Below are positions 5,062 through 64,000 of a stretch of DNA of 64,000 bases, in pieces. The stretch comes from Thermococcus sp. 2319x1 (GTDB lineage: Archaea; Methanobacteriota_B; Thermococci; Thermococcales; Thermococcaceae). A program made the position numbers and the translations under genes. Each line of letters opens with the position of its first letter. Position 1 is the first letter of the stretch. The notes beneath the pieces were generated by a model. It made no database searches. It saw only the letters and a list, made by a program, of their open reading frames with translations, and was not told the DNA's origin. The stretch is taken from assembly GCF_001484685.1 (NCBI RefSeq), contig NZ_CP012200.1:1854321-1918320 (forward strand), given 5' to 3'.

Positions 5062-5880
5062 TTAAACAGTACTTGACTCTGAGGAGGATTCTGTTGGTGT
5101 GATGAAACCTGGAGATTCTTTGTGTCCAAGTTTCGGATACTCTAAGAAAAATATCATTGTTGTGGTTGTGAGTGTTAGTGATATTGGGGCTGTAATTAAG
5201 ATTCCGAGAATTATGCCAATGGTGTTTAGGTTAACTGTCAAAAGTGTCATGACTATTGATATTGGAATGGCAAAAAGGAGGTATTTTATACCGTATTCAG
5301 CGTATTTTCCTCCGTTAAGGGCCAATTCCAAGCTTTTTCTGAGTGCCTCCCCAAAGGTTAGTTCTTGAGAAACTATGAGGTAAGGAGTTCCGTAGATTAA
5401 ATATGTCAGGAAAATCATTGTTGGGAGTGCGAGGAGTACAAATAATGGAGTTATCAATGCAAGGCCTATCATTACAAATAGAATTGGGAGTATTAGAACT
5501 CTGAACTTCAGCATCTCTACAAAGTATTTCCCAGCATTGTGGGGGAACTCATAAGTTCTATCCTCAAGTCCCTGCTTTATGCTTCCGAGATAGCCAGCTG
5601 CTAGATAGGATCCAATGATTGTGAACGCTATTAGTGAGATAAGTCCCGGAAGGGAAATGTTTATTCCAGGTTTTGGGTTTGGAAGTGAAACAAAACTCCA
5701 GAGATTGGGTACATCCTCCGGGAAGATGAATTTAACGCCAATATGAAATCCATGAAAGTCCAACACCCTCTCAATATTGTCAATTGAAAAGAGACTTGTA
5801 ATCATTGGAATTAACATTAACGGGATGAAATCAGATTTTCTATACCAAGCCTCCTCCAAAAGCTTCATGAACTCCACCAT
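5062..5880 (-). CDS. DUF4013-type integral membrane protein
   Basis: About 272 residues with roughly six hydrophobic helices. The pattern resembles DUF4013 proteins of Thermococcales and methanogens: a glycine-rich helix GYLGSIKQGLEDRTYEFPH followed by the long hydrophobic FVMIGLALITPLFVLLALP, then SQELTFGEALRKSLEL. The function is unknown; the fold resembles membrane proteins of unknown transport role. I prefer ATG 5880 because GGGGGTGTTT stands directly before it. A longer reading from 5922 would begin inside the 98-bp inverted-repeat element described next, and its first 14 residues look translated from that element rather than conserved. Confidence 0.7.
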   Translation of the reverse strand: MVEFMKLLEEAWYRKSDFIPLMLIPMITSLFSIDNIERVLDFHGFHIGVKFIFPEDVPNLWSFVSLPNPKPGINISLPGLISLIAFTIIGSYLAAGYLGSIKQGLEDRTYEFPHNAGKYFVEMLKFRVLILPILFVMIGLALITPLFVLLALPTMIFLTYLIYGTPYLIVSQELTFGEALRKSLELALNGGKYAEYGIKYLLFAIPISIVMTLLTVNLNTIGIILGILITAPISLTLTTTTMIFFLEYPKLGHKESPGFITPTESSSESSTV

Positions 5881-58623: not shown

Positions 58624-58938
58624 CCTAGTTCCCACCACCTGTAAAGTTGTATAATCCCTCCAGATTCACAGCCAGAATCGCCCCTAAAATCCTAACAGCC
58701 AACCCCCTCAAACTAACACTCCTGCCCGGTTTCAGAAGAAACTCAGAAAACTTCGAAAACAAAGTCTCAATCCTCCTCCGAAAATCAGACAGGTACTTGT
58801 AAAACTTCCTCTCCCCCAGACTACCAATCTGATTCTCCCGCTTTACCGGCGTGTAAACAACGTCAAACTTCAGGAATTCCCCTTCCAACTCCCTGCTGAC
58901 ATACCCCTTATCCAAAAACAAGAAAAAACCAGTGAACT
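58624..58938 (-). mobile_element. IS982 remnant, 3' third only
   Basis: Begins with CCTAGTTCCCACCACCTG, the IS982 right end with one T lost, and matches the 4090-5006 copy through FLFLDKGYVSRELE to about 58938, where similarity stops. The frame from 58625 still encodes the C-terminal transposase part (DKGY, FRRRIETLFSKFSEFLL) but the N-terminal half, with its first catalytic Asp, is missing. Confidence 0.85.
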
Positions 58939-59127
58939 GCCCTGTCCCCATATTTTTCTCAAAAAATGCAAAACAATCGTAAAATCGGCTGATCTTATCG
59001 TAAGCCTTTTTTTGCCTGAGCCTTGGTTCTATATACCCGTAATACCTTGCGATTTTTTGAATTCATTTTGTTCGCCTTTTGTAGTTTGTATTTTAAATTA
59101 TTTATAACTTGTCTCACGCATTTGTGT

Positions 59128-59325
59128 TCATTTATTCCTTCTTTTGGGCATTCCAAAATACCTCGGAGTGCTCTCTTTATACCTCCTGTATTCCTCTCCG
59201 AATATACGCTCTAAATAGGGTTCTTCAAGCTTGACGTTATACAAGTGAATCCCAATAAGGAGTGCCACCGTAAGCAGGAGCGCGAGGAGCGAACATTCGG
59301 CAATTAATAGAAATTGCTGAAACAA
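59128..59325 (-). pseudogene. Truncated isoprenylcysteine carboxyl methyltransferase-like C-terminus
   Basis: 65 codons from TTG 59325. One hydrophobic helix (LALLLTVALLIGIHLYNV) is followed by KLEEPYLERIFGEEYRRYKESTPRYFG, the SAM-binding C-terminal signature of ICMT/phospholipid methyltransferases, which are usually near 190 residues with several more helices. The N-terminal two thirds are absent. GGTGAGC precedes the TTG and it overlaps nothing, so the fragment may still be translated. Confidence 0.6.
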
Positions 59326-59329
59326 AAGC

Positions 59330-60140
59330 TCACCCCATCTTCGCCTTCCAGTACACCAGTACGAGCACTAAAATAATCCCCGTGAGAAGAACCCCGTAGA
59401 ATTTCAGGGACTCTTCTTGACACGTTGGCAGGCTGTTCTCGATGCCCTTCGTAAAATTCAACCTCCAAAGGAAGCTCCCGTCATAATAAAGCACGGTGAG
59501 GTTCTCCCAACCAAACGGAACGAAGGGGTTCTCTGGACGAAAGAACAGTAAAACACCTCCTCTCAGAAACACGGAGCTTAGGGTCACGTTATCAGGAATG
59601 TTTATGCTCAGATTGCCTGGAATTTCAATAACATAGGAAACGCTTCCATTTGAGGTGTAGATTTTAGAACCATTGATGTAGGCTGGATAATCATTACTCG
59701 ATATCGAGTAGTTCTCGGAGCGCATTGCACTGACGATCTGCGAGGGGAGCTTCATCGCCCTTCTAATACATGGCCCCTCCGGATTGATGACCATTCCATT
59801 ACTGATATACCACAGGCCATTATGGAAGACGTAGCGAAGCTCGTCGCCCCCGATCGTGTTTCCGAGATAATAGATCCTCCCGTCCTTGAAGTAGAAGTAG
59901 TACTTCTCCAACCATGCTCGGGGTGGGTACCCCCTGCATTCCGGGGCCCAGCGCGTCCCAGGAAAGCGTTATTATCGCGTCGTCTTCCCCGGCCTTGATG
60001 AAGGGATAGAAACTGCAGTACTCGGTGGGAGCAAGAACCGGATTCGGGCCGCAGAGGGATCTGGTGGCCGAGACGAAGGGTAGGAACGAAAGCGACAATA
60101 GAAAAAGAACAAGTCCTACCTTCCACATGCATTTACACAT
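59330..60140 (-). pseudogene. Exported membrane-anchored protein, broken by a one-base shift
   Basis: ATG 60140 (GGGAGGGG upstream) starts a signal peptide (CMWKVGLVLFLLSLSFLPFV). Reading is open to SWDALGPGMQG, where a run of five C on the plus strand (59930-59934) adds one base. Removing one base continues the frame as YPPRAWLEKYYFYFKDGR and on to a C-terminal helix and KAKMG. The intact product would be about 270 residues: signal peptide, external domain with sequons, C-terminal anchor. It is a paralogue of the next gene (KYYFYFKDGRIYYLGN aligns with DLYYLFNGSDLLFLGK). Confidence 0.68.
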
Positions 60141-60177
60141 ATGGGACCCCTCCCTTTTCAATTCTGCTTAAATTGAT

Positions 60178-61124
60178 CTAGACATGCCTCCTAATCCCCC
60201 AGTAAACCAGTATAAACATTAGGATGGCTCCAGTAAGGATAACTAAAGACTTGGGGAGGGTTAATCTCCGGGAAAATGTACGCTACCCACATGCATTTTT
60301 AGGTGAGTTAGGTTCTTCCCGTCATAAAAGAACAGAAGCGGTAACTCTGAAGCGGGGTCTCTCCCATTAACTTTAACATCTCCGGGGTAATAGATGAGAA
60401 TTCCCTTACCGACAGGTAGTGCATAAAGGGTTGAGAGTACATTGAGCGTTTTGTTCCCAAAGAAGCCTGATACATATCCGTCAAATTCAGTCACCGGAAT
60501 CCCATAAGTTAAATTTGCAAGTCTAAAGACTATGAAACCGTTCTCAATGACTCCCTTGACACCTGAGGGACTTTTCTGTGGGGTGTTGGCGAAGTAGCTC
60601 AGAATCTCGGTTCTATTACATTTTGTGCGCTCTGTCCCGTTCTGAAATTCAAGTCTTGTGCAGTTCCATATGAGAGAGGCACAACCATCGAAGCGATAAA
60701 CTCTCATTTCGGTTTTTTTGGCGGTGAGTGTAAGGTTCTTTGTCTCCCCGTTGATCGTCATGGTGACGTTTTTGTAGGGAACTACCATCTGCTTGCGCTG
60801 GAGAATGTAAAAAGTCCCGTTAATCTCGGCCACTACTGATGGTTCGCCGAGTAGAGGATTACTTTTTCCTAAAAACAGCAAGTCGCTTCCATTGAAAAGA
60901 TAGTAAAGGTCGTACTCCCCATCGGGCATGTTACGCCTAAGTGTTTCTTCCCCCGCAACCCTCTCGCATATCCATTCAGAATGGTGCACAATAATAAATG
61001 CATATCCATTGCTGGGTAGGATTGAGGTTATTGAATAGGTTTCATAAGGCTCACAAGTCTCACCAGAAACTAATGGAAAAATAAGTAGCAAAACTAAAAA
61101 CGAGATTTTAAAAGAGTTATACAT
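60178..61124 (-). pseudogene. Paralogous exported protein with a 3' frameshift
   Basis: ATG 61124 (GGGGGA upstream) starts a signal peptide (MYNSFKISFLVLLLIFPLVS). The frame runs to HVGSVHFPGD and stops at 60261. In a neighbouring frame the sequence continues LTLPKSLVILTGAILMFILVYWGIRRHV, matching the C-terminal anchor of the paralogue (GVLLTGIILVLVLVYWKAKMG), and ends at 60178. One base shift near 60270-60300 therefore removes the membrane anchor. Eight or more N-linked sequons are present. Without the anchor the protein may be secreted rather than lost. Confidence 0.65.
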
Positions 61125-62111
61125 AATTATCCCCCAATCTTCTAGTAAATCCCTCCATTTCACTAATGACATTCAGGTCAATGCTGAAATAGTATGCTCT
61201 GTTCGGATATAAACTTCCCAAGATATCCTTCTGCACTTTGGTGTAGTGGTATGCTATGATTTTAGCTTCAGTTGTGTACTGGCTTAAGCATTCTGGACTA
61301 AATGTTGGGGCACAATATTCAATAAGAGATATTCTAAAGTTTTCTTCTAGGTGCGTATGATTGATATAGTAAAAGAGCAAACTCTGATCGACTTCCATTT
61401 CTATGTAGATGTTGAACGCATCGTTCTCATTCTTTAGATTTTCAAGTTTTGTCAGCCACTCCTTAAAAATCTCATATGTGTAAGGTATGTAGTCGTTAGT
61501 TCCCCTTGCAATAGCACCTCTTTGGTAGTAATTTGGTTGTACAAAAATGTAGTCAAAGAGCCTTGACAGACTGAAAATATTAGTTTTTTCCAGTACCAAT
61601 GTGCAGGCGGAAGGTATCCATATAAACTTCTTGTTTAAGTTTCTCGCATAAGTCGATATCTCTTCAATGTCTTCCTCATATACTGTCCCATCGCTCACTT
61701 GCCATACATCCTCTAGGCTCCAGTAAAAGCCCTTTAAATTTCCTCCAGTCGAGTTTAAAACTCCATCAATCCACCCTTTCCAGTAGGACACCCCCTGACA
61801 CCCTTGCTGGAAACGTTTGTGTTATTCAATACAGGGATAGAAGCGAAGTAGTCAATAAAACCTTCAAAGTGTCTGTTTAACCAGCTTCCAAATTTGTTTC
61901 CATCGTAATACCCATCATCATATGAATATCCTCTCTGAGGAGTATTCCGACCTTCTCCGTTATCAAGTATCACTGCATAATCAAATCCTAACTTTTTGAA
62001 ATCATCAACAGTTGCAGAAATACCCTGCCAATTCTTGTCCCTTCCATTTATCATTCTCGATTCATACTTCAAACCATTCCATCTAATCCACCAAAGGCCA
62101 AGTGTTGCCAT
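61117..62111 (-). pseudogene. DUF4855-like protein, one-base frameshift
   Basis: ATG 62111 opens GLWWIRWNGLKYESRMINGRD. Reading continues to NNTNVSSKGVRG and then leaves frame in a C5 run on the plus strand (61791-61795); adding one base restores GVSYWKGWIDGVLNSTGGNLKGFYWSLED through FDYIFVQPNYYQ to the stop at 61117. The features (KGFYWSLED, FIWIPSACT, YIFVQPNYY) resemble DUF4855 glycoside-hydrolase-like proteins. A TATA-like ATTTTTATACTG precedes it. The 3' end overlaps the next gene's ATG, so three genes formed an operon. Confidence 0.65.
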
Positions 62112-62170
62112 TTGGCATCGCTAATATTTGCTACTCATGACAGTATAAAAATATTTTGAACAAAAAAGTG

Positions 62171-62939
62171 ATACTGTTAGGATAAGCTGTGGGGCGTCAG
62201 ATTTAAGTTATCAGCAATACTTCAGGAAAAGAAGGGGAACGTGAAGGCTGAAACCATTATTTACTGCTTGTTTTCAGCCTTAAAACCCTTTCGTCACAAC
62301 AAAATTCCAGCGGAAAAGAAAATCAGGGCAGTAGAATTATTGCAGGGCCTCAGTTACCGGCAAGTCTCCAAGATACTAGAAATCAGCCACACAAGAGCCG
62401 AAACAGTTCAAAAACTAGCGGAAGCAATTTACAAGCCAAAAATCCTCACAGTGAGGAAACAGAGGAATTTTATCGCAGTTGATGAGACTGTAATAAAAAT
62501 CAATGGACAGAAAAGATTTCTCTGGGCTGCGATTGATGTTGAAAGCGAAGAAATCCTCGCAGTCTGGATTACAGCCACCAGAAACTGGTGGGTTGCTAGG
62601 GAGTTTATTCTGGTTGTTTTAAAGTCCTGTGAAGGGCGGCCTGTTTTTCTGGTTGATAATGCTAGGGTACAAGTCTGCTTTTAAATCCCTTGGGCTGGCT
62701 TATGTTCACGTAACTTTCGGGCCAAGGAATAGTATTGAGCGCTGGTTTAGGACTGTGAAGGAGCGGACAAAGCGTTTCTGGAATAATTTAGGAGTAGCGA
62801 TTGGAGGGGGGTTCAGAGGTTTGTTTTTCTGTTTGCCTTCTGGTATAATTTTGTCAGGATTCATTCTCGGTTTAATGCTCCGCCTGGAAACATCGCTGAA
62901 TGGGTTCAGGAGGGGATACCCAAGTTATCCTAACAGTAT
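62171..62939 (+). mobile_element. IS6-family (ISPfu1-like) insertion sequence, inactive
   Basis: Perfect 15-bp terminal inverted repeats ATACTGTTAGGATAA (62171-62185) and TTATCCTAACAGTAT (62925-62939) bound a 769-bp element. The right end joins IS982 DNA directly at GATTGGTGG, about 52 bp inside that element, so it inserted there. The left flank is not IS982 and no 8-bp target duplication is present, so the two flanks were brought together by deletion or rearrangement after insertion. Confidence 0.88.
62241..62933 (+). pseudogene. IS6-family transposase, two frameshifts
   Basis: Starts MKAETIIYCLFSALKPFRHN; DDE residues include DETVIKINGQKRFLWAAIDV and FLVDNA. Near 62660 a small deletion shifts reading to YKSAFKSLGLAYVHVTFGPRNSIERWF, and near 62795-62815 a second shift moves it to RFVFLFAFWYNFVRIHSRF, ending at 62931-62933 inside the right terminal repeat. 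All three catalytic segments remain recognisable, so decay is recent. Confidence 0.87.
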
Positions 62940-63113
62940 GGATTGGTGGTTGTTGTGAATTTTCAGGAGGAAATCTTGCTCATAAAATCCGAGATTTACC
63001 CAATAATCAGCGAACGAGTGTTAGTTTGAGGGGTTTGACTGTCAGGATTTTAGGAGCAATTCTGGCCGTGAATCTGGATAGATTATACAACTTCACAGGT
63101 GGTGGGAATTAGG
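62940..63113 (+). mobile_element. Internally deleted IS982 derivative
   Basis: The left part encodes the IS982 transposase N-terminus (MNFQEEILLIKSEIYPIIS) and at about 63013-63017 joins the C-terminal coding part (SVSLRGLTVRILGAILAVNL) and the right end GGTGGGAATTAGG. Some 700 bp between are missing. The left terminus was lost to the IS6 insertion. This is how miniature elements arise from an IS. Confidence 0.83.
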
Positions 63114-63193: not shown

Positions 63194-63418
63194 ATGAAGC
63201 AGATAAAGAAGGTGATTAGAGATTGAAGAAAGGAGGTATATCCCTCCAGTAATTAGTAGAGATATCGACAGAATTGGACCTATTTGTGCCCCAGAAGCCC
63301 ATTGGAAAAGTGGCACTTTTACGAATGAATACATACCCCCACAATAACAAGGGAACCCGATAGAATTGGACCTATATGCGCTCCAGAGGCCCATTGGAAG
63401 TCAGGAGGAATTAATTGA
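63194..63418 (+). pseudogene. Tandem-core RiPP-type precursor peptide, apparently frameshifted
   Basis: ATG 63194 reads MKQIKKVIRD then stops. One base shift after VI continues as IEERRYIPPVISRDI followed by DRIGPICAPEAHWKSG, then TFTNEYIPPQ and a stop. A second shift in the C5 run 63336-63340 (one C more) turns that end into EYIPPTITREP, a second DRIGPICAPEAHWKSG, then GIN and TGA (63416-63418). The two 16-residue cores are identical although 8 of 16 codons differ synonymously, so selection acted on the protein. Repaired length is about 74 residues: a short basic leader and two 30-residue repeats. Cys, His, Trp and Lys are candidate modification sites. I do not recognise a family. Confidence 0.68.
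63237..63415 (+). repeat. Two tandem 30-codon units within the precursor gene
   Basis: Unit 1 is 63237-63326 (YIPPVISRDI, core, TFTN); unit 2 is 63330-63415 (YIPPTITREP, core, GIN). Each begins YIPP, then xI[ST]R[DE]x, then the invariant core. The match is protein-level, not only DNA. Confidence 0.75.
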
Positions 63419-63510: not shown

Positions 63511-64000
63511 ATGCGGAAAGACATACCATCACTTGATATCGTGGAGATAGACTTAACAAATAAATGTAATTTCATGTGTCGTCATTGTCGTGCTAATGCC
63601 AAAAATAAAGAGTATCACGAATTGGAGTATAATTTGTTACTCAAAACTATTGATGAACTAATAGACATGGATGTCCCAACAATAGTCCTTGCAGGAGGAG
63701 AACCATTACTTTATCCAAAAATTATCGAATTTGTGAATTACATAGTCTCTAATGGTAGTGAAGCGCATGTAACTACCAACGGATATTTCCATAGCACTTT
63801 GCAGGCTTTAATAGACAATGTGGAAAATCCAGAGCTTCTTAGAGTTGCTGTAAGCATTTACGGTCCAGAGAGATATCATGATGAAGTTCTGTGATGTGCA
63901 AGGGGCATACAATAAAGCTATTAAATCTCTTGAGCTTTGCATTGAACATGGAATAATAACGACAGTGAACTTCACAATAACTGGGGAAAACATAAGATAT
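63511..64000 (+). pseudogene. Radical SAM peptide-modifying enzyme, 5' part, frameshifted (runs off window)
   Basis: ATG 63511 with GAGGGA upstream. EIDLTNKCNFMCRHCRANA holds the CxxxCxxC cluster (C18, C22, C25), LAGGEPLLYP the SAM motif, and VTTNGYF the next strand, as in SPASM/Twitch peptide maturases. At about 63888 the frame stops (HDEVL); one base removed gives YHDEFCDVQGAYNKAIKSLE and open reading to the window end. The HDEF(x)3GxY pattern is usual in this family, so the shift is real or an error, not a natural end. C-terminal SPASM cysteines would lie beyond the window. It is likely to modify the upstream peptide. Confidence 0.72.

What the first reader, a model, noticed from the sequence alone, without database searches (positions are those of the whole stretch)
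63267..63409. Sixteen identical residues encoded with eight synonymous codon differences
Comparing codons of the two cores: D (GAC/GAT), I (ATT/ATA), C (TGT/TGC), A (GCC/GCT), E (GAA/GAG), K (AAA/AAG), S (AGT/TCA) and G (GGC/GGA) differ silently; R, I, G, P, P, A, H and W codons are the same; no residue differs. The Ser codons differ at all three positions. A recent duplication would not show this. The peptide sequence itself was held constant over a long time, which is strong proof that it is translated and functional in recent ancestry.
Basis: seen in the sequence. Interest (0 to 1): 0.85.

Follow-up and report, generated by a model that had tools for sequence, protein, structure and literature searches.

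The report
Decayed mobile archaeal modified-peptide gene cluster
The repeated 16-residue peptide is real: it is the remains of a two-unit precursor for a chemically modified peptide made by radical enzymes in heat-loving archaea, in a small gene cluster that has moved between genera and is frameshifted in this genome but intact in a relative.

Summary
In detail: DRIGPICAPEAHWKSG is encoded twice (63267-63314, 63359-63406) with 10 nucleotide differences in 8 codons, all silent, and only in that frame. But the cores lie in different reading frames here, neither has a standard start codon, and the radical-SAM gene behind them is broken at least three times. A relative in another genus (G060) holds the intact version: a 65-aa precursor with two leader-core units, two radical-SAM/SPASM enzymes, a PqqD-type recognition protein and an MFS exporter. 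The duplication predates the split of the two copies (11 sites to 0). GPICAPEAHW never changes in four copies; dN/dS is 0.11-0.19 across the cassette. The cassette was horizontally acquired: GC 37%, fourfold sites differ by 27% against 64-73% in two housekeeping genes, inverted IS ends flank it. Each core is preceded by YxxPxI, the motif bound by lasso-type recognition domains, and the modelled PqqD best matches such domains. Best reading: a mobile radical-SAM RiPP cassette whose precursor repeats recognition site plus core, lately inactivated here. It reaches no curated equivalog cut-off and occurs in 2 of 115 genomes of the phylum. Cross-link chemistry and biological role are unknown.

The parts
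63223..63418 (+). Frameshifted precursor-peptide gene with two tandem units (recognition motif + core), homologous to the intact 65-aa precursor of G060
   Evidence: tblastn pieces 63222-63341 (77.5% identity) and 63338-63415 (81%) in two frames cover the whole 65-aa G060 protein
63237..63254 (+). YIPPVI: candidate recognition motif YxxPx[LIV] of unit 1
   Evidence: sequence; motif definition in PMC13381572 and PMC12710340
63267..63314 (+). Core 1, DRIGPICAPEAHWKSG
63327..63349 (+). Second recognition motif (YIPP / TI), in which the reading frame is broken between the two units
   Evidence: DNA alignment with G060, where the same stretch reads YVPPTI without a break; frame change between the two matched pieces
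63359..63406 (+). Core 2, DRIGPICAPEAHWKSG
63511..64000 (+). Radical SAM/SPASM enzyme 1, broken by at least three frame changes; continues beyond the window to about 64547, followed by a PqqD-type protein (64569-64853), radical SAM enzyme 2 (64865-65860) and an MFS exporter (65842-67026), all three intact
63005..63113 (.). IS-derived end; an inverted copy (109 nt, 91%) lies at 67028-67136 beyond the window, so the cassette sits between two inverted IS ends
   Evidence: L021 coordinates 1326-1434 and 5349-5457

Best explanation
A precursor peptide of a radical-SAM RiPP pathway. The ancestral gene encoded about 65 residues as two tandem units, each with a recognition segment (Y-I/V-P-P-x-I-S/T-R-D/E) and a core (x-R-I/L-GPICAPEAHW-K/R-S). 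The separate PqqD-type protein would bind the YxxPxI segment of each unit and present the neighbouring core to two radical SAM/SPASM enzymes. These would install cross-links or other changes on the invariant Cys-Ala-Pro-Glu-Ala-His-Trp block. A protease not encoded in the cassette would separate the units, and the MFS carrier would export the product. The cassette moves as a unit between genera and was recently inactivated here by small indels in the precursor and in enzyme 1. Shown: gene content, conservation, order of duplication, horizontal transfer, frame breaks, modelled fold of the PqqD-type protein. Inferred: binding of YxxPxI, modification of the core, export, biological role.
For: Intact homologue with the same gene order. 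Radical_SAM and SPASM domains in both enzymes (the SPASM hit of enzyme 2 is just under its Pfam cut-off), PqqD and MFS_1, with many peptide maturases among the NCBIfam matches. dN/dS 0.11-0.19 over all five genes. GPICAPEAHW 0 of 20 residues changed against 10 of 35 outside, p = 0.009. PqqD model at pLDDT 94; best PDB matches TbiB1 bound to its lasso leader (5v1u, 5v1v, E 2e-5) and PqqD 5sxy. YxxPx[LIVFA] is the published target of such domains and stands before each core in both species. Transfer: fourfold-site difference 27% against 64% (PurL) and 73% (NadA), GC 37% in both hosts, IS ends, different genomic neighbours.
Against: No product is known. No dedicated protease is present. Both radical SAM proteins score higher against heme-pathway models (AhbD, NirJ) or TIGR04053 than against any peptide-maturase model, though all are far below cut-off. 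Only two loci are known, so the conservation rests on four repeat copies. YxxPxI is a short motif and binding was not tested.
Confidence: 0.85

Rival explanations
1. Peptide-derived cofactor pathway (PQQ- or mycofactocin-like): the peptide is cut down to a small redox cofactor rather than exported as a modified peptide.
For: The PqqD-type partner and PqqE-like radical SAM enzymes also occur in cofactor pathways. The core block is strictly conserved.
Against: Two cores per precursor, an MFS carrier inside the cassette, sporadic mobile distribution (2 of 115 genomes), no oxidoreductase in the cassette, and no Tyr in the core.
Confidence: 0.08
2. The frame breaks are assembly errors, and the gene cluster in this genome is intact and active.
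For: dN/dS stays low in the broken genes (precursor 0.137, enzyme 1 0.135), as expected if the breaks are errors or very recent. One break lies in a run of C.
Against: At least five breaks within 1.3 kb and none in the next 2.5 kb of the same cassette. Neighbouring genes and transposases at 58.6-63.1 kb also look broken, while the long genes from 0 to 58 kb look whole. The breaks in enzyme 1 are not all in single-base runs.
Confidence: 0.2
3. A small structural or regulatory protein with two repeats, unrelated in function to the radical SAM genes.
For: No family model matches the peptide.
Against: It travels with the four genes in both genomes although these sit in unrelated places, and it carries the recognition motif expected for the neighbouring PqqD-type protein.
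Confidence: 0.05

Closest known systems
SynChlorMet cassette (NCBIfam ScmD, ScmE, ScmF)
   Same: A PqqD-type protein with two radical SAM/SPASM proteins; ScmD is the best NCBIfam match of the PqqD-type protein here
   Different: All scores are far below the curated cut-offs (36 of 100, 101 of 400 and 114 of 400 bits); no paper on it was found in the library
Discrete recognition proteins of lasso peptides (TbiB1, 5v1u/5v1v)
   Same: Modelled fold of the PqqD-type protein (TM 0.74-0.85) and the YxxPx[LIV] motif in the precursor
   Different: No lasso protease or cyclase genes in the cassette; two radical SAM enzymes instead; the motif is repeated before each core
Sactipeptide and ranthipeptide maturases (SkfB, AlbA, StsB, PapB)
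   Same: Radical SAM/SPASM architecture; SkfB is one of only two solved relatives of enzyme 1 and the best one of enzyme 2; the core has one invariant Cys with a Glu three residues on
   Different: No model cut-off reached; one Cys per core; bond type not tested
PQQ biosynthesis (PqqD, PqqE)
   Same: PqqD domain over the Pfam cut-off; PqqE is the best solved match of enzyme 1
   Different: PqqE and PqqD equivalog cut-offs not reached; two enzymes, two cores, exporter

Membership tests
Radical-SAM RiPP pathway (general) | Short precursor gene with a conserved core beside a radical SAM gene | tested here: met
Radical-SAM RiPP pathway (general) | Recognition domain (PqqD/RRE) for the leader | tested here: met
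   Pfam PF05402 43 bits against cut-off 23.4; fold match to leader-bound RREs; binding itself not tested
Radical-SAM RiPP pathway (general) | Enzymatic modification of the core | not testable with these tools
   needs expression and mass spectrometry
SynChlorMet cassette | ScmD, ScmE and ScmF equivalog scores over cut-off | tested here: not met
   36/100, 101/400 and 114/400 bits
Lasso peptide | Transglutaminase-like protease and asparagine-synthetase-like cyclase in the cluster | tested here: not met
   the cassette holds only radical SAM 1, PqqD-type protein, radical SAM 2 and MFS
PQQ biosynthesis | PqqD and PqqE equivalog scores over cut-off | tested here: not met
   31/46 and 93/381 bits
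Sactipeptide/ranthipeptide | Thioether from Cys to a carbon of another residue | not testable with these tools
   one invariant Cys per core is compatible with it; no chemical data

The most novel reading that the evidence does not exclude
A RiPP family of hyperthermophilic archaea in which every core carries its own lasso-type recognition site within one precursor, so that one PqqD-type protein feeds two radical SAM enzymes unit by unit; a mobile cassette giving a heat-stable, cross-linked, exported peptide used between competing Thermococcales.
Probability: 0.35. Interest if true: 0.7.

Novelty: new variant of a known kind. Interest (0 to 1): 0.52.

Why it matters
Radical-SAM RiPP clusters are predicted widely in archaea, but a 2025 genome-mining paper on archaeal RiPPs stresses how few products have been identified (PMC12144867). 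This cassette gives a complete, compact, testable set from an organism group that can be cultured: precursor, recognition protein, two enzymes and exporter. Its repeated recognition-core layout lets leader recognition be tested within one molecule, and the broken copy beside the intact one shows gain and loss of such a trait by horizontal transfer.

Tried and rejected
The Novosphingobium hits for the precursor are chance: the matching frame lies opposite a long GGDEF/EAL-type gene. Plasmid, phage and viral-contig searches for the precursor gave nothing. Other radical SAM hits in the family are a widespread distinct protein at about 31% identity in longer frames. The antisense frame of the repeat was considered: it carries two amino-acid changes, so the silent pattern belongs to the + strand. 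Other PqqD loci in the class (G018, G089, G113, G114, G079, G064, G016) were fetched and searched for repeated YxxP precursors; none was a relative. The enzyme 2 model was poor (pLDDT 60) and was not used. An ammonium-transporter control had no match in this genome.

Full report
Observation. Both cores are present as described, with eight silent codon differences and no amino-acid difference. The pattern is silent in only one of six frames. Random placement of the same ten substitutions never gave an unchanged peptide in 20,000 trials.

Frames. The two cores are not in one open frame. Core 1 is open from 63216 to 63347 and core 2 from 63329 to 63418, and neither stretch has ATG, GTG or TTG ahead of its core. 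Comparison with the homologue shows one shift close to the start of the gene and one inside the second YIPP/TI motif.

Homologue. Of 94 genomes in the family only this one and G060, a different genus, contain the peptide, and no further one was found among the 115 of the phylum. In G060 the precursor is one intact 65-aa frame, MKERKYIPPTISRDLDRIGPICAPEAHWKSSTFMDEYVPPTITREPNRLGPICAPEAHWRSGEIS. It is followed by a radical SAM/SPASM protein of about 347-362 aa, a PqqD-type protein, a second radical SAM protein and an MFS carrier. Domain assignments are; the SPASM match of enzyme 2 is at 20.5 bits against a cut-off of 21.5. In this genome the order is the same, but enzyme 1 is split into pieces in several frames while the last three genes are whole.

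Selection. Between the two genomes dN/dS is 0.137 for the precursor, 0.135 for enzyme 1, 0.110 for the PqqD-type protein, 0.159 for enzyme 2 and 0.185 for the carrier. The broken genes are as constrained as the whole ones, so the breaks are recent or, less likely, errors. GPICAPEAHW shows no change in 20 residue comparisons against 10 of 35 elsewhere in the units (p = 0.009).

Age of the duplication. Eleven sites group repeat 1 with repeat 1 and repeat 2 with repeat 2 across genera; none support another grouping. The doubling therefore predates the separation of the two cassettes.

Movement. Fourfold-degenerate sites differ by 27% in the cassette, 64% in PurL and 73% in NadA, and the cassette is 37% GC in both hosts against 44% for the window and 49% for the G060 stretch. 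Here it lies between inverted IS ends 3.9 kb apart. In G060 it lies between a nicotinamide-nucleotide adenylyltransferase-like gene (my reading of the sequence) and an ABC transporter permease; related genomes have a different MFS gene there (G056, G025, G058) or nothing (G022). Transfer between genera, or from a common third source, is the simplest reading. That the host belongs to the Thermococcales rests on NadA: its closest solved relatives are Pyrococcus entries, from my own knowledge of those entries.

Mechanism. Each core is preceded by YxxPxI. Published work gives [Y/W]xxPx[L/V/I/F/A] as the segment bound by discrete lasso recognition proteins (PMC13381572) and reports W/Y/LxxP/L/I motifs for recognition-domain groups that include PqqD and the sactipeptide protein StsC (PMC12710340). 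The PqqD-type protein here modelled at pLDDT 94, and its top solved matches are TbiB1 with bound lasso leader, then PqqD. I therefore propose that each unit is recognised separately and its core modified by the two radical SAM enzymes. Which bonds form is not determined. The invariant Cys, Glu, His and Trp are the likely sites; Lys is replaced by Arg in one copy, which makes a Lys-Trp link less likely (inference). The exporter and the sporadic, mobile distribution suggest a secreted product, such as an antagonistic or signalling peptide, rather than a housekeeping cofactor (inference).

Membership. The locus meets the general features of a radical-SAM RiPP locus that could be tested. It is not a SynChlorMet, lasso, PQQ or other named NCBIfam system: no equivalog cut-off was reached and lasso enzymes are absent. 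No paper on a Thermococcales RiPP of this kind turned up in the library searches; that library holds only open-licence papers, so this is weak evidence of novelty.

Noticed in passing
window 58625-63112: Graveyard of insertion sequences: broken transposases (58625-58951, 62241-62958, 62960-63112) and two neighbouring genes that look broken (59330-60161 and 61117-62111).
   Followed up: partly
G113 and G114 (same class, other family), loci L105-L112, L115, L116, L118: Each of these two genomes of about 3 Mb carries 17-19 PqqD domains, many beside or in one frame with radical SAM genes: an apparently RiPP-rich, unexplored archaeal group.
   Followed up: partly
L119 (G000:C1:1335000-1345000): This genome and many relatives carry another PqqD-domain protein in frames of about 110-155 aa (here G000:C1:1339840) far from this cassette; its partner was not examined.
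   Followed up: no
L021 11600-13900 (about 9-12 kb past the window end): Stretch without convincing genes whose frames read as long Val or Gly runs, suggesting simple-repeat DNA or a decayed low-complexity gene.
   Followed up: no
L022 1-4982, L061, L064, L065, L066: The spot between the adenylyltransferase-like gene and the ABC permease holds a different MFS gene, this RiPP cassette or nothing in different genomes of the family, which looks like an integration hot spot.
   Followed up: partly
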